From the NCBI RefSeq assembly GCF_900142705.1, contig NZ_FRBV01000001.1, positions 186,001 to 250,000 on the forward strand: a stretch of DNA of 64,000 nucleotides, given 5' to 3'. Both the position numbers and the translations under genes were made by a program. Below the pieces are notes generated by a model that did no database searches, was not told the origin of the DNA, and saw only the letters and a program-made list of their open reading frames with translations. This document shows, one piece after another, positions 11,466 to 50,471 of the stretch (positions within the stretch are counted from its first letter, which is position 1; each line of letters begins with the position of its first letter). The DNA comes from Nitrosospira sp. Nsp11 (lineage in GTDB: Bacteria; Pseudomonadota; Gammaproteobacteria; Burkholderiales; Nitrosomonadaceae).

Positions 11466-12833
11466 TCAGGGATTGGCTATGGCCGCGAACTTTTCAAAAT
11501 AGTCAGGAAAAGTCTTGGCGACGCAACGGGGATCGTTTATACGCACAGGCGCGCCAAAAGACGCCAGCGAAAAGCACATGGCCATCCGGTGGTCATCGTA
11601 CGTATCAATTGCTGCATCCTTGGTGAGCCTACCGGCTGGCGGAGTGATACGCAGGAAATTCGCGCCCTCCTCCACCACTGCACCCAACTTGCGCAATTCC
11701 TTTGCCACTGCCGCGAGACGATCGGTTTCTTTCACCCGCCAACTGGCGATATTCCTGAGCGTGGTGGTACCAGCAGCAAACAACGCCGCCACCGCAAGCG
11801 TCATGGCTGCGTCCGGAATATGGTTGCAGTCGAGGTCAACGGCTCGCAGGCCACCAGATGCTGGGGCGCTTGCCTCGATCCAGTTAATGCCCACGCTGAT
11901 GCGCGCTCCCATTTCTTCCAGCACTTCGGCAAAACGGACATCTCCCTGAAGGCTGTCCTGTCCGATGCCCTCTACTCGCACCGGGCCGGTACCGATGGCG
12001 CCGGCGGCAAGGAAATACGAAGCGGAGGATGCGTCGCCCTCGACAAATATCTCCCCGGGGCTGCGATAGCGTTGGCCTGAACGCATAGTGAAGCGCTGCC
12101 ATTCCTCACGCTCCACCTGCACGCCGAAACGAGCCATCAGTGCTATGGTCAACTCGATATATGGTCGCGAGATCAACTCTCCCGCCACCGTTATCGTCGA
12201 CGTATGATTGAAGCGCATTGCGGATAAGGGCAAAGCCATCAGCAGACCCGTCAGGAACTGGCTGGATACATCACCCTTCACCGTTATCTCCTCTCCGTGG
12301 ATGCACCCTGGCTTGATTTGAAGCGGCGGAAAACCTTCATTTTCCAGATAGGTTATCTCCGCCCCCCACTGGCGTAGCGCACTCACCAGGTCGCCGATAG
12401 GGCGCTCATGCATGCGCGGTACACCGGATAATTTGTAATATCCCTGAGCCAGCGCCAGCACGGCCGTCAAAGGACGGAAAGCCGTGCCTGCATTGCCCAG
12501 GAATAAACTCGCTTCACTGACGGGAAAACGGAGAGGCAACTGTCCGCCTATGCCTTGCACCCGATAACTATTTTCATTGATCCGGACGATGGGCACACCC
12601 AGCGCCTCAAGTGCCTCCAGCATCCGCGCCGTATCGTCGGAAATAAGCAGATCACGTATGACTGTCGCGCCGTCGGCCAATGCAGCAAGCAATAGTATGC
12701 GGTTGGAAATGCTTTTAGAGCCAGGCAAGCGCACCGCGCCCTGAGCAGTCTTGACTGCCGGGAGATCAATAAAACTCACGCCGTGCCTTATAGGTCGTGG
12801 GGTCATCTTCGTCGATATGAATAAGGGTTGCAT
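11466..12833 (-). CDS. aroA: 3-phosphoshikimate 1-carboxyvinyltransferase (EPSP synthase)
   Basis: Sixth step of the shikimate pathway. The sequence has the class I EPSP synthase motifs [57 protein letters not shown], the [17 protein letters not shown] block and [10 protein letters not shown] near the end. Two ATG starts are possible, at 12833 (455 residues) and 12806 (446 residues). Neither has a clear ribosome-binding site; the shorter form is closer to the usual length of about 430. It is first gene of an aroA-cmk-rpsA-ihfB run. Confidence 0.95.
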
Positions 12834-13379
12834 GAAGACTCGAACATTATCCTGCCCTCTCTTTAAGATTCAATGCAGTGTCAGCGTTAATGAGATTCAA
12901 TGCAGTATCAGCGTTAAGAAGCAGCGCCGTTCCTGGTTTACAATACTTGCGGATGCTGGACGCACGGCTTGAATAAGTGCTCTCGTTTCCGGAGCAGGCT
13001 GCAAGCATCAAAGTAGTGCCTGAAGAGTTGGGCCTCGCCTGCGTCCTTCGGTAAACCTCAGCCAAATGGTTACTCCGACGCTTATACTCATGTTAAAATA
13101 ACTCAATGATTTCAGACGGATATTATAGGAAAAACAGCGTAAACCCTGCGATAAACCAAGTATTATAATCAATACGTCTTGAATAAACATTAAACCTGCT
13201 GTTCTGATGGACGCGCAGCTTCCGGTTGCGTCATCACCCAGGTTGCAAGAAAGCCTATCTCGAACGGGTTGGGCAGATTGAAACGATTTTAAGTTTTTTC
13301 TTCCAAACATGCCCCATCCTCACGTGCGTCATATTCGCGAGCAGGTTGGCCCGGAATCCATACTGAAGGAAGTCGCAGC
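12834..13379. other. 546 bp intergenic region between divergent aroA and cysK
   Basis: No gene is supported. Near aroA it carries a 27 bp tandem duplication (listed separately). Near 13165-13170 there is a consensus TATAAT on the plus strand that could serve cysK, though its -35 partner is poor. AAGGAAG about 9 bp before 13380 is the cysK ribosome-binding site. Confidence 0.4.
12866..12918. repeat. 27 bp tandem duplication upstream of aroA
   Basis: Two adjacent units starting AGATTCAATGCAGT, continuing (G or A)TCAGCGTTAA, with a period of 27 bp. The units differ at one internal base and at their ends. The duplication lies 33-85 bp upstream of the longer aroA start, within its probable leader or promoter. 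Function unknown. Confidence 0.8.
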
Positions 13380-15774: not shown

Positions 15775-16608
15775 ATGCACCCGAATTGCATTAAGTGCGG
15801 AAGTAAAAAAACGCACAGCTCTCGTGCCCGGCCTGGGGAACGGACAGTGTCCATGCTGTTCCTTCGGCCTGTACGCTGCCGCGATTGCAGACAACGCTTT
15901 TGGGTGCGAAACCCCCATGCTTATGTTGCAGTGGGATCTGCCCTAACCGTGGGTGCGATACTGATTGCGTTGGTCTGGCTAGTCATAGAAGAGAACATGG
16001 CTGACTATTACGTTGGGCCCGTATCTGAAATCGAGCTGGAGAATCCCGCTATTCCCGGCAATGGCAACCCCGGACGCGATCATGAAGAACACTTGAATGC
16101 GGCGACCACCGGCGTCAAACCTCCTGCCGGAACGGCAGCGACGCGTAACACAGGGCCAGCCTCTCCTGCGACACCAGGTCCGGCGGATGATCATTATTTT
16201 ACGGTGCGGTTGTATCAAGAGAGTGCTGAGAAGGGGGATAGCGATGCGCAGTATAAGCTCGGCCTGTTATATTTGACTGGAAATGGCGCCCTTCAGGATT
16301 TCGCCGAGGCTGCGAAGTGGCTTAAACTGGCAGCAGAACAAGGCTACGGCCCGGCACAGTATGAGCTAGGCCTCATCTACCGCACCGGATATGGCGTGGC
16401 TATCGATCAGGTACAGAGCTACGTATGGCTGAATCTCGCCGCTGCCGCCGGGGTTCAGCAAGCGGTAACGGCTCGGGACGAAATCATGCACACTCTTAGC
16501 CCCAAGCAACTTTTGCAAGCGCAAAAAATCTCGCGTGATTGGCTCTCTGCAAGACTCAAGCCCAAAACAACCGGCGAAAAGGCTAACCAGGCGGAGCCAG
16601 GAGATTAG
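15775..16608 (+). CDS. Zinc-ribbon, transmembrane, Sel1-repeat protein
   Basis: A 277-residue protein from ATG 15775 (a GTG at 15718 would add 19 residues). Order of parts: an N-terminal zinc ribbon with C5-x2-C8 and C35-x2-C38; one membrane segment at about 49-71; a Pro/Thr/Ala-rich linker with low complexity to about residue 145; then two Sel1-type helical repeats (AQYKLGLLYLTGNGALQDF and AQYELGLIYRTGYGVAIDQ) and a third partial one. Sel1 repeats bind other proteins. The likely topology is a cytoplasmic ribbon with a periplasmic repeat domain. Function unknown; no operon partner is evident. Confidence 0.82.
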   Translation: MHPNCIKCGSKKTHSSRARPGERTVSMLFLRPVRCRDCRQRFWVRNPHAYVAVGSALTVGAILIALVWLVIEENMADYYVGPVSEIELENPAIPGNGNPGRDHEEHLNAATTGVKPPAGTAATRNTGPASPATPGPADDHYFTVRLYQESAEKGDSDAQYKLGLLYLTGNGALQDFAEAAKWLKLAAEQGYGPAQYELGLIYRTGYGVAIDQVQSYVWLNLAAAAGVQQAVTARDEIMHTLSPKQLLQAQKISRDWLSARLKPKTTGEKANQAEPGD

Positions 16609-16909
16609 GCAATATATTAAAAGACCAGGAGCCCCTGCAAGGTCGCCTTAACGCTATACCGGGACATAATGCCGGGCAATAGGGCGATGGCAGGGATTGT
16701 GTCTGCGAAACAGCGTTGGCTTACTGGTTACCTCAGCGGGCTTTTCGGTTCATACTCGCCGCACTTATCGTTACCTGGGGTTATTTGAAGTTACAAGTTA
16801 CCTTAGGCAGCCGCTGAGCTAGCTCTTGGCCAGCCACCATGTCATGTTTTTTGCCCTTCCACCTCCAACCGCTTAGGTTCAATGCAGTTATATTGCCGGA
16901 GAAGCCGCC
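16609..16909. other. 301 bp intergenic region
   Basis: Between the Sel1 protein and the FAD oxidoreductase. No conserved frame, tRNA, terminator or convincing promoter was recognised. Confidence 0.4.
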
Positions 16910-18325
16910 ATGAATGAATCATACGATGTCATCATTGTCGGGGCCGGCACTGCGGGTCTGGCTGCATTGAATGAAGTGAAGAAGCAGACATCCAACTTCA
17001 TCCTCATCAACGATGGACCATGGGGAACGGTCTGTGCCCGGGTGGGTTGCATGCCTTCCAAAGCGCTGATCGAGGCAGCGAATACCTTTCACTCTCGCAG
17101 CACGTTTGAGGAATTTGGTATTCGGGAAGCGAGTTCTCTCACACTTGACATTCCTGCTGCGCTGTGGCGTGTACGCCGGCTACGCGATGATTTTGTTGCC
17201 GGCACGCTGAAGATTTCCGAAGCACTGGGCGAGCACGCGATTTCCGGTCGTGCGCGCTTGCTTGGACCAGGAAGGCTGGAAGTAAACGGGCGTGAACTTC
17301 GCGCACGCAGCATTATCATCGCTTCCGGCTCACGCCCGGTCGTCCCTGAGCCATGGCGGGTTTTCGGGAAGCAATTGCTCACTACGGATACATTATTCGA
17401 ACAGCAAACGCTGCCTTCCCGCATGGCAGTGATAGGCTTGGGCCCGGTGGGCGTGGAAATGGCCCAGGCGCTTTCCCGGTTGGGCGTGGATGTCGTGGCG
17501 TTTGGCGAGCAAATCTCGATTGCGGGATTGAAAGACCCCAGCGTGAATGCCGCGGCGATAGAACTTTTGAAACAGGAATTTCCCATTCATCTGGGGCAAA
17601 AGGCTGAGCTACGCGCAACTAACGGCGGTATGCAAGTACATGCCGGAAGTAAAGAGGCCATGGTCGACAGCGTTCTCGTCAGCCTGGGCCGTCGGCCCAA
17701 TATCGACAGCCTTGGGCTGGAAACATTGGGTGTCGAACTCAATGAGCAGGGGCTGCCTTCAGTCGATCCTCATACTATGCAAATAGCCGATCTGCCGGTT
17801 TTCATGGCTGGCGACATCAACGACCACACTCCTCTTCTGCATGAGGCAGCGGATGAGGGATATATCGCCGGAGTCAACGCGACTCAGCGTGATCCCCTGT
17901 ATTTCAAGCGCCGGGTCCCACTTGCGATAGTCTTCACCGATCCGGGCATTGCGATGACAGGCACGCGCTTCGATTCGCTCGACGTCGATACGATACTGAC
18001 GGGAGAAGCGCGTTTTGAACATCAGGGCCGCGCCAGGGTGGCCCAGCGCAACAAGGGCATCCTACGTCTTTATGCCGAACCGGAAAGCGGCCGGCTACTC
18101 GGTGCCGAAATGTGTTCCCCCGCGGGGGAACACATGGCACATTTGGTGGCGCTAGCCATCGAGCGTTCGCTCACGGTACATGATATGCTGCGATTGCCGT
18201 TTTATCACCCCACTCTGGAAGAAGGTTTGCGCAGCGCTTTGCGCCAACTATCGGCACAAGTTCCCGCTTGCGGCAAATCGGATCTTGCCGGCTGCGATGC
18301 ATTCGATTGCGAGGCTCTTAATTAA
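16910..18325 (+). CDS. Dihydrolipoyl dehydrogenase-like FAD disulfide oxidoreductase
   Basis: A 471-residue class I pyridine nucleotide-disulfide oxidoreductase. It has FAD-binding VGAGTAG (10-16), the redox pair C42 and C47 in TVCARVGCMPSK, an NAD-binding GLGPVGVEMAQALSRLG loop, the second FAD motif FMAGDIND, and the C-terminal dimer domain ending in FYHPTLEEGL. The His-x4-Glu catalytic pair of E3 enzymes is kept, though the His preceding it in typical HAHPT is absent. No lipoyl domain and no dehydrogenase-complex genes are adjacent, so it may reduce another disulfide or quinone. CDS certain, substrate not. Confidence 0.85.
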   Translation: MNESYDVIIVGAGTAGLAALNEVKKQTSNFILINDGPWGTVCARVGCMPSKALIEAANTFHSRSTFEEFGIREASSLTLDIPAALWRVRRLRDDFVAGTLKISEALGEHAISGRARLLGPGRLEVNGRELRARSIIIASGSRPVVPEPWRVFGKQLLTTDTLFEQQTLPSRMAVIGLGPVGVEMAQALSRLGVDVVAFGEQISIAGLKDPSVNAAAIELLKQEFPIHLGQKAELRATNGGMQVHAGSKEAMVDSVLVSLGRRPNIDSLGLETLGVELNEQGLPSVDPHTMQIADLPVFMAGDINDHTPLLHEAADEGYIAGVNATQRDPLYFKRRVPLAIVFTDPGIAMTGTRFDSLDVDTILTGEARFEHQGRARVAQRNKGILRLYAEPESGRLLGAEMCSPAGEHMAHLVALAIERSLTVHDMLRLPFYHPTLEEGLRSALRQLSAQVPACGKSDLAGCDAFDCEALN

Positions 18326-39098: not shown

Positions 39099-39458
39099 TT
39101 GAAGGTTAAAGCAACGTTTGAGGAAGTATTTTCCCGCATTCCAGGTCCTGTCACCGCAGAATGGTCCATGGGTGAACGATTCGCCGTTGCGCTTGCTCAC
39201 GGCAGCATGTCGATCGAATATTACGCACCCATCGGCCTTGACCCCCAGATACCGCATGAACAGGATGAGGTTTACTTCATCCATAAGGGGACAGGTGAGC
39301 TTGTTATCGGTGAAGATCGTCATTCGTTCAAGGCGGGCGATTGCCTGTTTGTAGCCGCCAACGTTGAGCACCGGTTCGAGAATTTTTCCAGTGATTTTGG
39401 AACGTGGGTTGTATTCTGGGGGCCTAAAGGTGGCGAAAACGATGGTGGAAGCGGTTGA
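39099..39458 (+). CDS. Small cupin-fold protein
   Basis: A 119-residue single-domain cupin. It contains the conserved motif 1 (PHEQDEVYFIHKGTGELVIGE, where H, E and a later position supply metal ligands) and motif 2 (GDCLFVAANVEHRFENFSSD). The start is TTG at 39099, supported by a strong GAGGAGGG site 4-12 bp upstream. Cupins range from enzymes to sugar-binding proteins. Substrate unknown; no catalytic assignment is justified. Confidence 0.8.
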   Translation: MKVKATFEEVFSRIPGPVTAEWSMGERFAVALAHGSMSIEYYAPIGLDPQIPHEQDEVYFIHKGTGELVIGEDRHSFKAGDCLFVAANVEHRFENFSSDFGTWVVFWGPKGGENDGGSG

Positions 39459-39549
39459 GGAAAACCCCTGATTCACCAGCCTGTTCAAGCATGGTCATGT
39501 ATTAGTCATGTCTTCGTTAAATGCTTTGTCATCGCTGCGAGCCTGTTCA

Positions 39550-40470
39550 TCAATGTGGTGTCTTGTGGGAGTGGGCTGAGTGGGCTGAATGGGCTGAGTG
39601 CGCCGAAGTGTCAGCATCCTCGGGAAGATGAAGTTGATGCAGGATGCCGTCAGTGAAGACCTGATAATTTATGTCGTAATACAGGCGATACTGGATTTTT
39701 CGTGCGTCGGGTCTTGGCTGTACGGATCCCGGGGTGGCGGTTGAACCTTGATAGACCTTGCCCGAGAACTCGTAATGGAATACCGGTCCAAAGCCGCTAT
39801 AAGGCAGCGTCAACGTTTCGGAATGTATCAGCTTGTCGCCATCGTCAAAGGCATGAACGTCAATCCATGCGTTGGCGCCGAGAGTGGTTTCTCTGACCCA
39901 TGCAGTCACCTTCAACATCGTCTGCAAGTCTGTTCCTTGGCGGGGGCCGCCTTCCGGCAGTGGTGGAAAGACGTTGACCTTGACAGCACTGTGCTCCAGC
40001 ACATTAACCGTCTCCGGACTTGTTATCGCGCCGCTGCGATAAGCGACCGGCTGCATCGGGGCTCGCGCCGGCGCACCGTCGATCTCGAACCAGTAATTGG
40101 AGCCAAACCGGCTGTCCCAAGCGTCGCAACGCGTGCTGGTCTGATAAAAATTGTGGAACCAGATCTCCGCCTGTGCAGCGTCATCCGGCACCGCGGTTTC
40201 AAATGGCGCAGGCACATGTCCGATAATTATGCCTGGTGGGCTTTCCTGGTTTCGGACCGGGGCAATCACACTGCCGCTAACGACCTCCCCTCGAGGATGA
40301 AACCGGATATATGCGGTGATATCGCCGAGCCCGGCGCCATGCCATGTCGTGAAACAGTGCGGTAGTCTGTGCATGTCATACTCGACCTTGAGCCGTCCAC
40401 TGCGCTCGATCATGCCATGCTGGAACTCGCGCCAATCCCCGAGGAACTGAATCGTTGCTTTTGATTTCAT
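39550..40470 (-). CDS. Unassigned protein downstream of the GMC-DUF1080 fusion
   Basis: A 306-residue protein with no signal peptide or membrane segment, starting MKSKATIQFLGDWREFQHG after a GGAGGAAATT site. The N-terminal ~110 residues carry KVEYDMHRLPHC and ITAYIRFHPRGEVVSG; the C-terminal half has NAWIDVHAFDDGDKLIHSE and RLYYDINYQVFTDGIL. The general look recalls the small DUF6209-like group, but I cannot confirm this. The tail is a (Ser-Ala-His) repeat coded by four 9 bp units. Only 29 bp separate it from the GMC-fusion gene upstream, so the two form an operon. Confidence 0.7.
   Translation of the reverse strand: MKSKATIQFLGDWREFQHGMIERSGRLKVEYDMHRLPHCFTTWHGAGLGDITAYIRFHPRGEVVSGSVIAPVRNQESPPGIIIGHVPAPFETAVPDDAAQAEIWFHNFYQTSTRCDAWDSRFGSNYWFEIDGAPARAPMQPVAYRSGAITSPETVNVLEHSAVKVNVFPPLPEGGPRQGTDLQTMLKVTAWVRETTLGANAWIDVHAFDDGDKLIHSETLTLPYSGFGPVFHYEFSGKVYQGSTATPGSVQPRPDARKIQYRLYYDINYQVFTDGILHQLHLPEDADTSAHSAHSAHSAHSHKTPH
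39571..39606. repeat. Four tandem 9 bp units coding Ser-Ala-His repeats
   Basis: Plus-strand units GTGGGCTGA, GTGGGCTGA, ATGGGCTGA, GTGCGCCGA: a microsatellite near the 3' end of the unassigned gene. The two outer units differ from the inner core by 1-2 bases, so the repeat could change copy number by slippage in frame. Confidence 0.9.
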
Positions 40471-40499: not shown

Positions 40500-43232
40500 T
40501 TAAGCGGTCTTGATGCGGACATGGCGCCAGGCGACTGTGCTGCCCGCATAAGCCTGGATGCCGATGAATCCGGGGGATAGGCCGCGGTTTGCGTCGGTAT
40601 TGTGGAATATCGTCGTTTGCTTCCGTTCGCCGGTCTCGATATTGGTAAGGAAGACGGCATAGTCGTTGCCCTGCACGACAATCTCATATTCAAACCAGGT
40701 AGCGGGAACGAGCGCGGGGCCGGGCGTATAGTTCTGCACGGCCGGTTCGTTGAAATTCAGGTGCCAGACTTTATCGCCAGCCTGAATTTTATAGATCGCG
40801 CCGGTACGATTTTTAAATAATCCATCCGGCTCAGGCTTGATGCCATAAAAGTCCTTGCCGGAATCCCCGCGGGCGTTGTCGTCGATCTGGACCTCAAAAC
40901 CAGCAATCACAGGTTTCCAGGCAGGATTTGCCGCATCGAAGGAAGGTTCGGGCGATGGTTGCTGCGAGACGCGATTTTGGAGAGCCGCGGTCAGGCCAGG
41001 CGTCGGGCGCGGGAAGCGGACGAATACGCCGCTGTTGTGGTTTGTGGCGTCGAAGATGCGAAACTGCAGGCGCAACGTGAAATCGCCAAAAGCTTCCTGG
41101 GAGTAGTAGAACAGCCGCAGCGCGCCATCGCCATAGCTGACCATTTCGCCGTTGAGGTGCAGCATGCCACCGCCGCCGGGTCCGGCAAGCGTCCAGTTTT
41201 TGAACTTAGCCGCCGTGCCGTCGAAGAGCGGGCGGAAACCGGTTTCGTCCTGAGGACTGATGACCGGGTCGGGGCTGAAGAGCACGCCACCGTTGAGCAA
41301 ATCTCCCGTCCGACGGCCCAGCGCGACACCCGTGAGCATCGGGTTCGGTGAACCCAGAGAGGGGAAGAGCGCCGGGCTGGCAACGTAGCAATTGGTGGTG
41401 TCGTGGATACGACCAAAATCATTGGTTACAGCGTCCGCGATGTTGTCGCCCATGCGCATCGTGCCCGCGTCGTGGTGCGTGGTACCCAGGTCGTCGCGAC
41501 GGTTCCTGAACGCGGAGAGTATGGCCAGCCGCTGCGCCCGGGTACCAGAAGGTACCGGAATGGCGCCGTCAGGATTGGCCAGAAGTATCTCGAACGGTTC
41601 ATTGCCGGCAAAGATGAGCGCGATCTTATCGGCTACCACATCCATGGCATCCCATGTGGCGCGATCAGTGTTGGTCTGTGCACTGCCGGGAAACTGCTGT
41701 GGACTGGCTTTGGCGTTGCCGAGATGAACAACGGCCTTCGGGCGCCCAAAGTCACTTTCCCGCGTCGAAAGATCAATGAAGCTGTCGGGATTGCGAGTTG
41801 TCATTTCGCCGATGCCGCGAATGGTGATGACGACGGTCGCATCATTCGCGCGGCGCATCGCTTCGAAAAGTTCCAAATCCGGGATTTTCTTGAAAAGCTC
41901 GGCTTCGGAATCGCTGCCCAGCTTGCCCAATCCAGAGGCGGTGATCTGGAAGTGATAAGTCCGGTTGTTGGGTGCCTTGCCTTTGATGAGCAACGCCGAT
42001 GCCTGGAGGCTGGGAATCAACGTGGCCGGCAGGTTGGCCGCGATGGCCGTGCGCGGTATCCGTATGGTGAGGTTGGTACGCAGATGCGCAATAAGATTTT
42101 CACCCATGCGTTGCGCAGCGCGCCCAGCAAGCGATTGCTGAAAGGTGGTCAGTGCCACTCGCGTGGTTTCAACCGTGCCAAGCGCGATTACCGCCGCACC
42201 CTGCCTGCCGTTTCGCGGTGGCGCGAGCAGAATATCCCGTGATGCGCCATTCTGCCAGATACGCGCGCCCGTTACTCGCACCCAATTATCGGCTTGCGTC
42301 TCGGTGATGAGTTCCTGTACGTGGCAGTTTGGCACAATCATGAGCCGCTTGCGTGCGTCCGCTACCGGTCCTACTCCGTCCGCCTCTTTGTTCGCCAGCC
42401 TTGCTGCGCTGATCAACCCGGGGATCGCGCTGAATTTATTGATTGGAAAGAATCCAGGCAACGTTGTCGACTGTACCGCAAGTGGTGCTTCAAGTTTGAA
42501 AAGTTCGTGCAGGACCGCCTCGGGAGTGATGTCGGTGCCGGGCAAACCCAGCCAGTCACGAAGCGGCGCTGCGGTCAGCGGCGGTTCTCCGGGGTCGGGG
42601 TAGCGCACCGCCGGATGCTCAAGGAGCTGAGCGAAGGTAAACCCTGTTTCATTGCCTGGTGTGTTGAGCCCGGCGTGGAGTTGTTTGCGCAGCGCAATGT
42701 GGAGCGGCCCGTAGATGAAGTCGTTAGTCTCTTTTACGCCGATCTGCCGACTCGACTGTGCGAAATAACCCTCAGCGGGAGGTGGCGGCCGCAACGCCGT
42801 TTTTACCGCTGGTGGCCATGCCGCCATTTCCTCATCAAGCATCTCGGGCGACCACCCGCCCCATGTCAGCGAGCGCCCTCCGACAGCGAAGATCAGGCCG
42901 AGGTAGTTCAGTGCGGGATGATTGACCCATGGCACACGCAAATCCGGCGCACCTCCCATAAACGGCATGTTTTGCACGTGCTCGGGCACTACGAATGGCC
43001 CTGCCTCGAGTACGAGAATCCGGCGGCTGCGCGTGGCATCGGTAATAAAAAGATGTTCCGCCATCACTGCGCCGAAGGTGCCGCCGCCAATGATAATTAC
43101 ATCAAAGCCGCGCTGGCGCCCACCGACGGTTTGCGCCGCACTATCGACTGCTTCCTGCAAGGTGTTGCAGAGGAACCTCCCCATGTTGTCCAATGTAAAC
43201 GAAGTGGATTCAGAGGCCAGCAATTGAGGCAT
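40500..43232 (-). CDS. GMC oxidoreductase fused to a DUF1080/3-keto-disaccharide hydrolase domain
   Basis: A 910-residue protein with two modules. Residues ~43-650 are a GMC-family flavoenzyme: dinucleotide loop DVIIIGGGTFGAVMAE (44-59), the FAD-proximal ADP region ILVLEAGP, GGRSLTWGGWSP, catalytic His in THHDAGTMRMG (near 584), and the partner Asn in GSPNPMLTGVALG (near 628). Residues ~663-905 match the DUF1080 lectin-like fold: FRPLFDGTAAKFKNW, FYYSQEAFGDFTLRLQFR, NHNSGVFVRFP and NYTPGPALVP..W..YEIVV. Members of that domain family are described as 3-keto-disaccharide hydrolases. No signal peptide. First gene of a two-gene operon. The fused order is unusual (see findings). Confidence 0.9.
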   Translation of the reverse strand: MPQLLASESTSFTLDNMGRFLCNTLQEAVDSAAQTVGGRQRGFDVIIIGGGTFGAVMAEHLFITDATRSRRILVLEAGPFVVPEHVQNMPFMGGAPDLRVPWVNHPALNYLGLIFAVGGRSLTWGGWSPEMLDEEMAAWPPAVKTALRPPPPAEGYFAQSSRQIGVKETNDFIYGPLHIALRKQLHAGLNTPGNETGFTFAQLLEHPAVRYPDPGEPPLTAAPLRDWLGLPGTDITPEAVLHELFKLEAPLAVQSTTLPGFFPINKFSAIPGLISAARLANKEADGVGPVADARKRLMIVPNCHVQELITETQADNWVRVTGARIWQNGASRDILLAPPRNGRQGAAVIALGTVETTRVALTTFQQSLAGRAAQRMGENLIAHLRTNLTIRIPRTAIAANLPATLIPSLQASALLIKGKAPNNRTYHFQITASGLGKLGSDSEAELFKKIPDLELFEAMRRANDATVVITIRGIGEMTTRNPDSFIDLSTRESDFGRPKAVVHLGNAKASPQQFPGSAQTNTDRATWDAMDVVADKIALIFAGNEPFEILLANPDGAIPVPSGTRAQRLAILSAFRNRRDDLGTTHHDAGTMRMGDNIADAVTNDFGRIHDTTNCYVASPALFPSLGSPNPMLTGVALGRRTGDLLNGGVLFSPDPVISPQDETGFRPLFDGTAAKFKNWTLAGPGGGGMLHLNGEMVSYGDGALRLFYYSQEAFGDFTLRLQFRIFDATNHNSGVFVRFPRPTPGLTAALQNRVSQQPSPEPSFDAANPAWKPVIAGFEVQIDDNARGDSGKDFYGIKPEPDGLFKNRTGAIYKIQAGDKVWHLNFNEPAVQNYTPGPALVPATWFEYEIVVQGNDYAVFLTNIETGERKQTTIFHNTDANRGLSPGFIGIQAYAGSTVAWRHVRIKTA

Positions 43233-44042: not shown

Positions 44043-44245
44043 ATCTGCAAGTCTCGCAAAAGTATCCCGTGGCATTGCTTTGGGAAGGCCCCTACTCGCC
44101 GGGAGAATATTCGAGGCCTTTATCCTTGTGTTCATTGTGCCGCTGCGCCATGCGCAGGCTTGCCGCATTCCTATCTGCGTAAGGACCGGCTGACTCATAC
44201 GAGCGCCGGTTACGGAGTTTGATATCTACCTTGCGGAGGACTTTC

Positions 44246-45694
44246 ATGAGCTTTGATGTATCGTTCGCGCCGTCACGATATTCCGTGCTGGCTGGATGGC
44301 TTATTCTTGTGCTGAGTTGGCACTCTTCGGCAATTGCGGAAGGCACCTTTGCCGGCGTCATTCCCGACAGAAGCCTGCGCGTTTCCGATGTGCTCCAGCC
44401 TGAGGAGAAGGACGACTTGACTTTACGGGATGCCGCGCTGCTTGCATTGCAGCGCAATCCCGAGCTGGCTTCTTTTGCCAAGGAGATACGCGCGCTGGAA
44501 GGCGCAACACTTCAAGCTGGGCTGCTTCGAAACCCGGAGTTATCGGTCAATGTCGAAAATATCGGAAATATTCAGCCGCTTCAGGGGGATATCAATTCGC
44601 AAAAGGCGGTTGCACAGGAGGTTGTGCAACAAATCACGACTATCCGCATCAGTCAGCTGATCGAGCTCGGCGGGAAGCGCGCGGCTCGAGTCAATGCGGC
44701 GCTGCTCGGTGAAGAACTGGCAGGTAAAGACTATGAAACAAGACGGGTGGAACTTATCGCCCGGATAGCAAATACCTTCACGGAAGTGCTGGCCGGACAA
44801 GAACGTGTGCGGCTTGCCGAGGATAACTTGCAACTGGCACAGAGGGTAGTCAATACGACGGGGAAGCGTGTCCAGGCCGGCAAGGTGCCTCCCATCGAGG
44901 AAACCAGGGCCGGAGTGACACTCTCCACCACCCGGATCGAGCTTGAGCAAGCGCAGCGTGATCTGGCGTCGGCGCGCAAACGGCTGACGCTGCTATGGGG
45001 CAACGCTTCCCCGCGATTTACCCGAGCGCTGGGAAATCTTGAATCATTGATCACCCTGCCAAGCTTTGAAGTTCTCGCGGAACGCGTTCTCAGCAGCCCT
45101 GCAGCGCTTCGCGCCATGAAAAATATAGAACAGCGTAAAGCGCTGCTGGAGGTGGAACAGACGCGGCGGATACCGAATCTCACCATAAACGCGGGTGTCG
45201 TTCATCACGCTCTGCTCGGGGGCAATACGCCCGTGGTCGGCCTGGTGATGCCGTTGCCATTTTTCGACCGCAATCAGGGCAGTGTCCGGGAAGCGCATCA
45301 ACGTGTAGACAAGGCCATCGACGAGCAGGCAGCCATCGACCTGCGGCTTAAAGCCGAGCTCACGCTGGCGTATGAGGCCTTGTCGAGTGCGCAAAACGAG
45401 GTAGGTATACTGCGCGACGAAATTCTGCCCGCGGCCAAAAGCGCGTTCGAGGTTACCAACAAAGGCTATGAGCTGGGTAAATTTGGATTTCTTGAAGTGC
45501 TGGATGCGCAACGCACTTTATTCCAGAACAGAATCCTTTATGTGCGCGCGCTTGCGAATTACCACCGCCTGGTCAATGAAATCGAACGCGTGATTGCAGC
45601 ACCCATCGATGCGGCGGTAAGTCCTGCTGCAATCAACGGCCCAAATACAAATGGCACAAATGACGCAAATGGGGATTCAAGGAGCACATTGTGA
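44246..45694 (+). CDS. czcC: Outer membrane efflux protein, CzcC-like
   Basis: A 482-residue TolC-family protein. ATG 44246 has a perfect GGAGGA site, so the TTG nine codons upstream is not needed. A signal sequence (LAGWLILVLSWHSSAIAEG) is followed by two OEP repeats with long helices (ALLALQRNPELASFAKEIRA ... ELTLAYEALSSAQNEVGILRD). It forms the outer channel of an RND pump. It overlaps the next gene by 4 bp (GTGA), showing translational coupling. It contains no metal-binding motif of its own. Confidence 0.9.
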   Translation: MSFDVSFAPSRYSVLAGWLILVLSWHSSAIAEGTFAGVIPDRSLRVSDVLQPEEKDDLTLRDAALLALQRNPELASFAKEIRALEGATLQAGLLRNPELSVNVENIGNIQPLQGDINSQKAVAQEVVQQITTIRISQLIELGGKRAARVNAALLGEELAGKDYETRRVELIARIANTFTEVLAGQERVRLAEDNLQLAQRVVNTTGKRVQAGKVPPIEETRAGVTLSTTRIELEQAQRDLASARKRLTLLWGNASPRFTRALGNLESLITLPSFEVLAERVLSSPAALRAMKNIEQRKALLEVEQTRRIPNLTINAGVVHHALLGGNTPVVGLVMPLPFFDRNQGSVREAHQRVDKAIDEQAAIDLRLKAELTLAYEALSSAQNEVGILRDEILPAAKSAFEVTNKGYELGKFGFLEVLDAQRTLFQNRILYVRALANYHRLVNEIERVIAAPIDAAVSPAAINGPNTNGTNDANGDSRSTL

Positions 45695-47241
45695 ATAAGC
45701 GCCAAAGGATATCGATTGCCGTTGTCATCGTAACAGGGATCTTACTGGGTGGATTAATCCTTACCTGGAACAAGGCTTCTTCTCCCGATATCCCACATGA
45801 GGTTCATGATGAAGCTGCCGCCACCGGCGCTCACGAGGACCATAAAACCAGTAACCACCCAGCGACGGAAAGGCGAGCGGGACAAGAGCCCGGCAAAGGT
45901 CCCAAGGGAGGAAAGCTGTTTATCAAGAACGGCTTCGGCGTAGAGGTCACCATTTTTGAAAAAGGAGTACCGCCGCAATTGCGCCTCTACCTCTATGAAA
46001 ACGGGAAGCTTCTTCCGCCCACTGCCGCGAAAGTGACGCTCACGCTATCCCGGCTGGGTGCGCCGGCGCAGATATTCAACTTCAAGCCTGAGGCCGACTA
46101 TCTGCTGGGCGATCAGGTAGTGGAGGAGCCACACTCATTCGATATGGCAATCGCAGCCGAACACGACGGTGAAACGTTTCGCTGGGGTTACAGCCAGGTC
46201 GAAGCACGTGTAGCAATGCCGGACGAAATGCTGAAAAGCATCGGCATCGAAATACGCACTGCCGGACCAGCAATGCTCAAACTGACGCTCAAGCTGCCGG
46301 GCGAAATCGTATTCGACGAGCATACCATCGTGCAGGTCGTACCCCGGTTGCCCGGCATCGTGGATGCCGTCTATCGGCATCATGGCCAGCATGTGCAGAA
46401 AGGCGAGGTACTTGCCGTCATTGAAAGCATGATGCTGGCTGATTTACGCAGCCAGTTCTTCGCAGCGCGAAAACGGCTGGGGCTGGCGCGGATCACATTT
46501 GAACGTGAAAAGCAGTTGTGGGAAGAAAAGATCTCCGCAAAGCAGGATTATCTCACTGCCCAGCAGGCGCTGGTCGAAGCCGAGATCGCTTCCGATCTTG
46601 CCTTATCCAAATTGCGCACGCTTGGCGTGCGGCCTGAGGCAATCTATCAGGAGCATGATCTGTCCCGCTATGAGATCCAGGCTCCAATTCCGGGCCTTAT
46701 TACCGCCAAAGCCATAGCGCAGGGCCAGACGCTTAAAGAGGATACGGCGATCTTCACCATAGCCGATGTTTCCACCGTATGGGCGCAAATCACGGTTTAT
46801 GCAAAAGACCTGGATGTGCTCAAGATCGGGCAGAAGGCAAAGGTAAAAGCCACCGCGATCGATGTGGAGGGCGAAGGGGAGATCTCCTACATCAGCGCCC
46901 TTGTCGGTGCCGCGACGCGCACTGCCACCGCGCGGATCATACTGGATAACAAGGACGGCAGATGGCGGCCAGGCATGTTTGTCACAGCCGAACTGGTGGT
47001 CGAAGAAATTCAAGTGCCTGTCGCGGTTTCGGTGGATGCCATCCAGACACTGAATGATTGGTCGGTGGTGTTTGGCCGCTACGGGGAACACTTTGAAGCA
47101 CGTCCACTGAAGCTCGGCCGCAGCGATGGCAAAATGGTTGAGGTGCTGGGCGGACTCTCCGCTGGAGAGCAGTACGCCACAGGCAACAGCTTTATCATCA
47201 AATCCGAACTCGGCAAGGCAGGTGCATCCCATGATCACTGA
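45691..47241 (+). CDS. czcB: RND efflux periplasmic adaptor, CzcB-like
   Basis: A 516-residue membrane fusion protein. The start is GTG at 45691 within the czcC stop (AGGAG site). Membrane anchor at 8-26, then a His-rich stretch (HEVHDEAAATGAHEDHKTSNHP) that suggests metal binding, a ~100-residue N-terminal extension domain (KLFIKNGFGVEVTIFEKG), and the barrel-sandwich/hairpin/beta-barrel modules (VVPRLPGIVDAVYRHHGQHV ... GLITAKAIAQGQTLKEDTAIF). A C-terminal HDH ends the protein. The extension plus His-rich linker is the CzcB/CusB type for divalent metals. Confidence 0.92.
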   Translation: MNKRQRISIAVVIVTGILLGGLILTWNKASSPDIPHEVHDEAAATGAHEDHKTSNHPATERRAGQEPGKGPKGGKLFIKNGFGVEVTIFEKGVPPQLRLYLYENGKLLPPTAAKVTLTLSRLGAPAQIFNFKPEADYLLGDQVVEEPHSFDMAIAAEHDGETFRWGYSQVEARVAMPDEMLKSIGIEIRTAGPAMLKLTLKLPGEIVFDEHTIVQVVPRLPGIVDAVYRHHGQHVQKGEVLAVIESMMLADLRSQFFAARKRLGLARITFEREKQLWEEKISAKQDYLTAQQALVEAEIASDLALSKLRTLGVRPEAIYQEHDLSRYEIQAPIPGLITAKAIAQGQTLKEDTAIFTIADVSTVWAQITVYAKDLDVLKIGQKAKVKATAIDVEGEGEISYISALVGAATRTATARIILDNKDGRWRPGMFVTAELVVEEIQVPVAVSVDAIQTLNDWSVVFGRYGEHFEARPLKLGRSDGKMVEVLGGLSAGEQYATGNSFIIKSELGKAGASHDH

Positions 47242-47291
47242 AAATCGGTGCAACCAAACGGCAAACTGCAGGTCAGCCGAGATTTTCCTGA

Positions 47292-50471
<3,180 letters not shown>

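What the first reader, a model, noticed from the sequence alone, without database searches (positions are those of the whole stretch)
40500..43232. One polypeptide joins a GMC flavin oxidoreductase to a 3-keto-disaccharide hydrolase-type domain
Seen directly: 910 residues with a complete GMC module (GGGTFG loop, HHDAGTMRMG, SPNPMLTG) followed by a DUF1080-type domain (FRPLFDG ... NHNSGVFVRFP ... YEIVV). Known: some GMC enzymes oxidise C3 of glucosides, and the DUF1080 family includes 3-keto-disaccharide hydrolases; the two activities are normally on separate proteins. Inference: the fusion could oxidise a disaccharide or glycoside and split the 3-keto product in one chain. In a probable autotroph, such an enzyme would be unexpected and may act on stored or host-derived sugars, or on a non-sugar substrate.
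Basis: partly seen in the sequence, partly recalled or inferred. Interest (0 to 1): 0.75.

Follow-up and report, generated by a model that had tools for sequence, protein, structure and literature searches.

The report
Sugar-oxidising and sugar-splitting fusion enzyme
One bacterial protein joins a probable sugar-oxidising enzyme to a domain from a family that splits oxidised sugars; close copies occur in unrelated bacteria, often beside chromate-resistance-type genes, which hints at an unsuspected role.

Summary
The fusion is real: 910 codons, minus strand, 40500-43232, with a GMC flavoenzyme module and a PF06439 3-keto-disaccharide hydrolase domain. It is an established architecture: both parts are covered in 22 of 23 loci found and in 15 of 23 genomes of the genus, but in 0 of 397 other Pseudomonadota sampled at E <= 1e-60. 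Key motifs are invariant over 17 fusions; both domains are under purifying selection. Best reading: a cytosolic two-step enzyme that oxidises a glucosyl unit and cleaves the 3-keto product. An alpha-glucan-type substrate is weakly hinted at by alpha-amylase neighbours of two distant members and by a low-confidence CBM21-like model of the adjacent DUF6209 protein. New here: 13 of 31 loci have ChrL, ChrB or ChrA within 10 kb; 18 do not. Fusion and ChrL identities do not track each other, suggesting repeated pairing rather than one transferred unit. The window copy lacks the ChrL gene of its closest relative. No activity is shown. No paper with both 'GMC' and 'DUF1080' was found.

The parts
40500..43232 (-). 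GMC oxidoreductase / 3-keto-disaccharide hydrolase-type fusion, 910 aa (P0001)
   Evidence: same architecture in A1 and in the paralogue L003:8112-10670
43071..43088 (-). GGGTFG dinucleotide (FAD)-binding motif, residues 49-54
   Evidence: sequence; G49, G50, G51, F53, G54 invariant over 17 fusions
41316..41669 (-). PF05199 GMC_oxred_C, residues 522-639
   Evidence: E 6e-14
41472..41477 (-). H586-H587; H587 aligns with a His of the C-glycoside oxidase 8qve
   Evidence: invariant; the corresponding role is that of PsG3Ox H440 (PMC10646112, passages)
41343..41345 (-). N630 of SPNPMLTG; aligns with the Asn of 8qve, role as PsG3Ox N484
40509..41240 (-). PF06439 3keto-disac_hyd domain, residues 665-908
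   Evidence: E 1.2e-24; 12 of 12 C-domains of A2 match at E <= 0.01; PDB relatives 3imm, 3s5q, 4jqt, 3h3l, 8rr2, 8tda
41028..41036 (-). N733-S734-G735, invariant motif of the C-terminal domain
40881..40895 (-). E780-x-Q782-x-D784, invariant motif of the C-terminal domain (putative active site)
   Evidence: E and Q align with EIQI of 3imm and 3s5q, with a one-residue shift before the D in 3imm
39550..40470 (-). DUF6209 protein (306 aa), same strand, 29 bp after the fusion's stop; model partly CBM21-like
   Evidence: PF19714, E 2.7e-17; also beside the fusion in G006, G010 (=L004), L007 and L010; Foldseek of a low-confidence model
39491..39571 (.). 81-bp stretch where the closest relative (G006, L047) has 1274 bp including a DUF1259/ChrL gene
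   Evidence: (gap between blastn blocks)
44219..50471 (+). heavy-metal RND efflux operon (outer-membrane, adaptor and CusA/CzcA-type genes), divergent from the fusion; conserved flank of this site
   Evidence: OEP; RND_mfp over cut-off; TIGR00914 CusA/CzcA, 1611.8 bits

Best explanation
A cytosolic, FAD-dependent bifunctional enzyme. Step 1 (inferred): the GMC domain takes hydride from a ring hydroxyl, most likely C3 of a glucosyl unit, through the His587/Asn630 pair; its electron acceptor (O2 or quinone) is unknown. Step 2 (inferred): the C-terminal PF06439 domain cleaves the now activated 3-keto glycoside, by hydrolysis or by elimination and hydration, to release free sugar. Substrate (weak inference): an alpha-glucoside or a short alpha-glucan; in the window the DUF6209 partner may bind the glucan. 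The gene is horizontally mobile and is often found beside ChrL/ChrB/ChrA and metal-efflux genes, where sugar oxidation could supply reductant or remove a sugar by-product under oxyanion or metal stress. Shown: architecture, conservation, purifying selection, distribution, gene neighbourhoods. Not shown: any activity, the regiochemistry, the substrate, the location in the cell, or a role in chromate resistance.
For: Domains; 12 of 12 C-domains match PF06439. Fold: after the mimivirus fibre 7ptv, the GMC part is matched best by C-glucosyl oxidoreductase 8qve (3.4e-10), C-glycoside oxidase 7dve and pyranose oxidase 7qf8; the C-part by 3u1x (4.1e-8). Motifs: H587 and N630 align with 8qve; these and N733-S734-G735, E780, Q782, D784, Y814, Q893 are invariant over 17 fusions down to 43% identity (columns with at least 14 letters). 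Selection: dN/dS against G006 0.065 (GMC) and 0.129 (C-domain). PF06439 and 3-keto sugars: BT2157 and fitness data for CCNA_01705 (PMC9007349, passages). GMC glycoside 3-oxidases exist (PMC10646112, passages). Alpha-glucan hints: alpha-amylase genes beside the Rhizobium and Nostoc fusions, CBM21-like DUF6209 model. Context: chr genes within 10 kb in 13 of 31 loci; 7 of 11 DUF1259 genes in 22 genus genomes lie within 2 kb of a fusion or its remnant.
Against: No assay. PF06439 is not only 3-keto hydrolases: the same paper lists an endo-xanthanase/lichenase, THTE_1561 (PMC9007349, passages). Its catalytic residues could not be checked against a mechanistic paper, so 'active site' rests on conservation. 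GMC enzymes act on many alcohols; identity to the solved sugar oxidases is 11-17% in the structural alignments. The full-length model is mediocre (pLDDT 62). The DUF6209 model is poor (pLDDT 59.8), six of its seven leading CBM21 matches are one protein (PTG), unrelated TEAD and RhoGDI chains follow closely, and no sequence match to CBM21 appeared. DUF6209 is beside the fusion in only 3 of 22 genus genomes. By eye (no prediction run) the fusion has no signal peptide while ChrL has one, so the two may not share a compartment. 18 of 31 loci lack chr neighbours; 8 of the 22 genomes behind the loci have neither ChrB_C nor DUF1259 (some are incomplete assemblies).
Confidence: 0.5

Rival explanations
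1. The C-terminal domain is not catalytic here but a lectin-like module that holds a sugar oxidase on a glycan; only the GMC step happens.
For: Lectins and a galectin-like protein are among the Foldseek matches; Laminin_G_3 and Laminin_G_2 each match one member of A2 (E 9.8e-5 and 0.0096); C-domain dN/dS is higher than that of the GMC part (0.129 against 0.065).
Against: Motifs shared with solved PF06439 proteins are invariant; 12 of 12 C-domains match PF06439.
Confidence: 0.2
2. The fusion is a true accessory of chromate (oxyanion) resistance: oxidation of a cell sugar feeds reductant, or the reductone-like 3-keto products, to Cr(VI) reduction, in parallel with the flavoenzyme-type ChrJ of Arthrobacter. 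This may be the same enzyme as in the best explanation with its role named.
For: chr markers within 10 kb in 13 of 31 loci, from the Nitrosospira-type genus, Nitrospira, Nitrobacter, Rhodospirillales, another proteobacterium and Acidobacteriota; operon-like order ChrA-ChrL-fusion in Nitrobacter, fusion-ChrL in G003 and G012 and fusion-DUF6209-ChrL in G006; ChrL of Nitrobacter and of the genus are 32-36% identical although the fusions are 74% identical, while inside the genus fusions of 43-47% identity sit by ChrL of 69-87%, so the pairing looks repeated; chrL and chrJ (a malate:quinone oxidoreductase homologue) contribute to chromate resistance in Arthrobacter FB24 (PMC2751784, passages).
Against: 18 of 31 loci have no chr gene within 10 kb; 8 of 22 genomes behind the loci lack ChrB_C and DUF1259; at the window's own site chr genes are missing and the fusion stays; CHR transporters may move other anions.
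Confidence: 0.2
3. The neighbourhood is hitch-hiking: the fusion is a mobile sugar-catabolism gene that lands in metal-resistance islands by chance.
For: The window's clade mixes phyla; recombinase-like genes (read by eye) flank the paralogue and a 73% identical one lies in the Nitrospira locus; the window's flank is a metal-efflux operon.
Against: By my arithmetic a DUF1259 gene would lie within 2 kb of a fusion with a chance of roughly 0.3% in a 3.2 Mb genome, against 7 of 11 seen (loci not independent); fusions of clades A, B and C are each paired with ChrL.
Confidence: 0.25
4. The GMC domain oxidises a non-sugar alcohol, and the C-domain has drifted to another reaction.
For: GMC substrates are diverse; the best NCBIfam hits are mycofactocin and choline-type families, all far below cut-off; the best sequence matches in the PDB include 5-hydroxymethylfurfural oxidase.
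Against: Glucose dehydrogenase leads the sequence matches and sugar or C-glycoside oxidases most of the top structural ones; the PF06439 partner and alpha-amylase neighbours point to sugars.
Confidence: 0.15

Closest known systems
PF06439 3-keto-disaccharide hydrolases (BT2157; CCNA_01705 with LacABC)
   Same: C-terminal domain family; partner of a C3 sugar oxidation (PMC9007349, passages)
   Different: In the Caulobacter case oxidoreductase and proposed hydrolase are separate proteins and the hydrolase is proposed to be periplasmic; here one chain, cytosolic by eye
GMC glycoside 3-oxidases / C-glycoside oxidases (PsG3Ox 7qf8, DaCGO1 8qve, 7dve)
   Same: Among the best structural matches of the GMC part; His/Asn pair aligns with 8qve
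   Different: Solved enzymes lack the second domain; in the C- and O-glycoside routes I read passages of, cleavage is by unrelated Mn2+ eliminases (PMC10628242); identity is 14-17%
chr clusters with chrL (Arthrobacter FB24; Cupriavidus STM 6070)
   Same: ChrA, ChrB, superoxide dismutase and ChrL lie near several fusions
   Different: No GMC/3-keto hydrolase fusion is mentioned in the passages read (PMC2751784, PMC7060636); in FB24 the accessory oxidoreductase is a malate:quinone oxidoreductase homologue

Membership tests
GMC oxidoreductases | GMC_oxred_C domain over curated cut-off | tested here: met
   53.2 bits, cut-off 24.6
GMC oxidoreductases | GMC_oxred_N domain (PF00732) | tested here: not met
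   not listed at E <= 0.1; FAD-binding motif present, fold matches GMC enzymes
GMC oxidoreductases | Catalytic His plus His/Asn | tested here: met
   H587 and N630 align with 8qve, invariant in 17 fusions
GMC glycoside 3-oxidases | Oxidation of a glycoside at C3 | not testable with these tools
   needs assay
PF06439 3-keto-disaccharide hydrolase | Whole-profile match over cut-off | tested here: met
   87.8 bits, cut-off 26.8, profile 1-187
PF06439 3-keto-disaccharide hydrolase | Known catalytic or metal residues kept | tested here: inconclusive
   conserved motifs kept; no mechanistic reference readable
PF06439 3-keto-disaccharide hydrolase | Cleaves 3-keto glycosides | not testable with these tools
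   needs assay
chr (chromate resistance) cluster member | Lies beside chrA/chrB/chrL | tested here: inconclusive
   13 of 31 loci; not in the window itself
chr (chromate resistance) cluster member | Needed for or induced by chromate | not testable with these tools
   needs experiment
CBM21 (for DUF6209 partner) | Sequence match to a CBM21 family | tested here: not met
   only DUF6209 in 4 of 4 members (and one HlyD match, E 0.2)
CBM21 (for DUF6209 partner) | CBM21-like fold | tested here: inconclusive
   ranks 1-7 are CBM21 (best 2.1e-4; six of them PTG), but the model's pLDDT is 59.8 and unrelated chains follow closely

The most novel reading that the evidence does not exclude
A one-chain oxidoreductive glycosidase acting on cellular alpha-glucan is a repeatedly recruited accessory of ChrL-type chromate/oxyanion resistance: stored sugar is oxidised and split to give reductant, or reductone-like 3-keto sugars, for detoxification. 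This would link the 3-keto glycoside pathway to metal-oxyanion stress in autotrophic nitrifiers and other bacteria.
Probability: 0.15. Interest if true: 0.8.

Novelty: new variant of a known kind. Interest (0 to 1): 0.52.

Why it matters
In the examples I could read, the 3-keto route of glycoside breakdown is a set of separate enzymes. A single chain that holds both steps, conserved across phyla, would be a natural two-step biocatalyst and a simple system for studying the PF06439 domain. Its repeated pairing with ChrL (DUF1259), a protein of unknown biochemistry whose loss lowers chromate resistance in Arthrobacter, gives a testable lead to what such accessory genes do.

Tried and rejected
Sequencing or assembly artefact: rejected, the same uninterrupted order in many genomes. 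Phage gene: no match at E 1e-5 in 50,697 phage records. Obligate pairing with DUF6209: rejected, 3 of 22 genus genomes. Obligate pairing with chr genes: rejected, 18 of 31 loci without. Transfer of ChrL and fusion as one unit between the genus and Nitrobacter: unlikely, identities differ; for Acidobacteriota the contrast is smaller (ChrL 37-44%, fusions 56-59% to the window). Shared cleft between the two active sites: not judged, model too weak. A glycosyltransferase-like gene (read by eye) about 60 bp downstream of the paralogue as a general partner: rejected, no match in the 15 other loci compared. PF01408 sugar reductases in the own genome: 4 matches, uninformative. DUF6209 by sequence in the PDB: nothing below E 1. 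Gemmatirosa relative of the DUF6209 C-terminal half: neighbourhood uninformative. Rows dropped: L082 does not hold the fusion (my wrong contig number) and was left out of the count of 31; L023 itself shows no chr neighbour. L005, L008, L009, L011, L014, L020 and L024 lie on short contigs and were not in the table. G002 (80% complete) was left out, L021's genome out. A DUF1259 fragment in G011 and one beside the Microvirga fusion are not counted. The census scored at most two candidates per genome at E <= 1e-60.
Full report
What is there. The window holds one uninterrupted minus-strand frame of 910 codons at 40500-43232. Pfam finds GMC_oxred_C at residues 522-639 (E 6e-14) and 3keto-disac_hyd at 665-908 (E 1.2e-24, whole profile); the N-terminal GMC model is not listed at E <= 0.1. 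NCBIfam gives only sub-cut-off GMC families.

Fold and motifs. AlphaFold2 on 18 aligned fusions gave mean pLDDT 62, too weak for domain arrangement. Foldseek matches the GMC part to the C-glucosyl oxidoreductase 8qve, C-glycoside oxidase 7dve and pyranose oxidase 7qf8, and the C-terminal part to the putative glycosyl hydrolase 3u1x; the very first row is the mimivirus genomic fibre 7ptv. By sequence the PDB list is led by a glucose dehydrogenase, followed by hydroxymethylfurfural oxidase and others. A profile of 12 C-domains finds 13 PDB sequences at E <= 1, led by 3imm (4.4e-14), 3s5q, 4jqt and 3h3l and including 8rr2, named 3-keto-disaccharide hydrolase domain-containing protein. H587 and N630 align with a His and an Asn of 8qve; in PsG3Ox the corresponding pair (H440, N484) is needed for activity (PMC10646112, passages). 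Over 17 fusions down to 43% identity, H586, H587, N630 and, in the C-domain, N733-S734-G735, E780, Q782, D784, T810, Y814 and Q893 never change (only columns with at least 14 letters, the Nostoc member not included). Both domains are under purifying selection: dN/dS 0.065 and 0.129 against G006, 0.064 and 0.093 against G010. That the PF06439 positions are catalytic is inference; I found no readable mechanistic paper.

Distribution. The search for related loci gave 23 loci in genome contigs: Nitrosovibrio, Nitrosospira, Nitrospira, Nitrobacter, Microvirga, Rhodospirillales, unclassified proteobacterial and gammaproteobacterial MAGs, Acidobacteriota and Chthoniobacter. In 22 of the 23 the match spans both parts (L014 and L024 cut by contig ends, L011 and L025 with broken frames); in L026 only residues 657-909 match. 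Among 61 genomes of the relatives search 20 had a match at E <= 0.001, but only 15, all of the same genus (23 genomes including the own one), carry the fusion; the other five have short GMC-only matches. Contig lengths identify several of these genus genomes as Nitrosospira multiformis strains and Nitrosovibrio tenuis. Of 398 Pseudomonadota sampled only the own genome matched at E <= 1e-60. The own genome has two fusions, the second 45% identical. Plasmid records of Rhizobium leguminosarum (36%) and Nostoc (29%) carry distant members over nearly the full length. In the tree, the window's clade of 16 mixes the own genus, Nitrospira, Nitrobacter, Acidobacteriota, Verrucomicrobiota and Rhodospirillales (identity to the window 74-96%), the mark of horizontal transfer; the program warns that Nostoc and Rhizobium are long branches whose place is unsure and that clade B may be drawn to clade A by long branches.

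Neighbourhood in the window. Downstream by 29 bp on the same strand is a DUF6209 protein; it lies beside the fusion in G000, G006 and G010, the only three of 22 genus genomes that have the family, and beside the Nitrospira L007 and Rhodospirillales L010 fusions. Its model is poor (pLDDT 59.8), yet the first seven Foldseek matches are CBM21 domains, best E 2.1e-4, six of them from one protein, with unrelated chains close behind; sequence searches do not confirm this. Divergently upstream lies a CusCBA-type metal efflux operon.

Chromate-type neighbourhood elsewhere. Near related fusions I found DUF1259/ChrL, ChrB, ChrA, an Fe/Mn superoxide dismutase, EamA transporters and a protein family without Pfam match. 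In the table of 31 loci (one of them a fusion remnant, 19 from one genus), 13 have ChrL, ChrB or ChrA within 10 kb and 18 do not. In 22 genus genomes 7 of 11 DUF1259 genes (two of the seven with broken frames) lie within 2 kb of a fusion or remnant; the other four are in G005, G008, G011 and G021, and in G005, G011 and G021 they adjoin a ChrA gene. By arithmetic chance would give about 0.3% per gene, though the loci are related. In Microvirga a DUF1259 fragment with a stop lies about 0.2 kb from the fusion; it is not counted. ChrL of Nitrobacter is 32-36% identical to ChrL beside fusions of the own genus, although the Nitrobacter fusion is 74% identical to the window's; inside the genus, fusions of three clades (43-47% identity) sit by ChrL proteins of 69-87% identity; for Acidobacteriota ChrL are 37-44% and the fusions 56-59% identical. 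So the pair was not simply moved as a unit, at least between Nitrobacter and the genus. In Arthrobacter FB24 chrL and chrJ, a malate:quinone oxidoreductase homologue, contribute to chromate resistance (PMC2751784, passages); Cupriavidus has a chrL next to a concanavalin-like exported protein (PMC7060636, passages).

Against a chr role. 8 of 22 genomes behind the loci have neither ChrB_C nor DUF1259 (some incomplete, and one of the eight, that of L026, has only the C-terminal part). At the window's own chromosomal site, between the Cus operon and the cupin/Lon genes, G006 has fusion-DUF6209-ChrL, G009 has a different fusion clade with ChrL, ChrB and EamA, G008 has that clade without chr genes, and the window has 81 bp where G006 has 1274 bp including ChrL. 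So the fusion can stay where its chr neighbours are absent.

Sugar link. The distant Rhizobium fusion is followed by an alpha-amylase family gene, and the Nostoc one has such a gene 3.4 kb downstream (with a transposase gene between) and a DyP-type peroxidase gene upstream. With the CBM21-like DUF6209 model this points, weakly, to an alpha-glucan-type substrate. PF06439 proteins are tied to 3-keto sugars by BT2157 and by fitness data for CCNA_01705, but the same paper lists an endo-xanthanase/lichenase of this architecture (PMC9007349, passages).

Literature. No paper in the held library has both GMC and DUF1080, none DUF6209, none chromate, GMC and ChrB together, and PF06439 is named in three papers, one of them on cardiotoxicity. 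Subscription papers are mostly missing from the library; recent work on 3-keto glycoside cleavage in Bacteroides is recalled, not read.

Verdict. The proposed two-step action is plausible and the best reading, but unproven. It is a new variant of a known kind, with an unexpected and apparently repeated chr-type context as the main new lead.

Noticed in passing
window 39491-39571 against L047:9410-10683: A DUF1259/ChrL gene present in the closest relative G006 is missing from the window (81 bp against 1274 bp).
   Followed up: yes
L003:983-1822 and 12158-13159: The own genome's second fusion copy lies between two recombinase-like genes (read by eye), one of which has a 73% identical relative near the Nitrospira fusion (L007).
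   Followed up: partly
L065:8207-9883 and 15925-17820: The Nostoc plasmid fusion has a DyP-type peroxidase gene 36 bp upstream and an alpha-amylase gene downstream; annotated M4 metallopeptidase and emfourin genes lie near.
   Followed up: partly
L066:5507-6834: Azospirillum plasmid: only residues 584-908 of the fusion are matched, under two annotated genes, next to an M4 metallopeptidase gene.
   Followed up: no
L052:9305-10078 (G007): A remnant holding only the C-terminal part of a clade A fusion (77% identical, residues 645-909), still beside a ChrL gene.
   Followed up: partly
window 39099-39458: A small cupin gene shared by the same chromosomal site in G006, G007 and G009 (family 24).
   Followed up: no
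L011, L025: Fusion frames interrupted in these metagenome-assembled contigs; pseudogenes or assembly errors.
   Followed up: no
L083:6965-7474: Gemmatirosa has a stand-alone relative of the C-terminal half of the DUF6209 protein (44% identity), so that half looks like a module of its own.
   Followed up: partly
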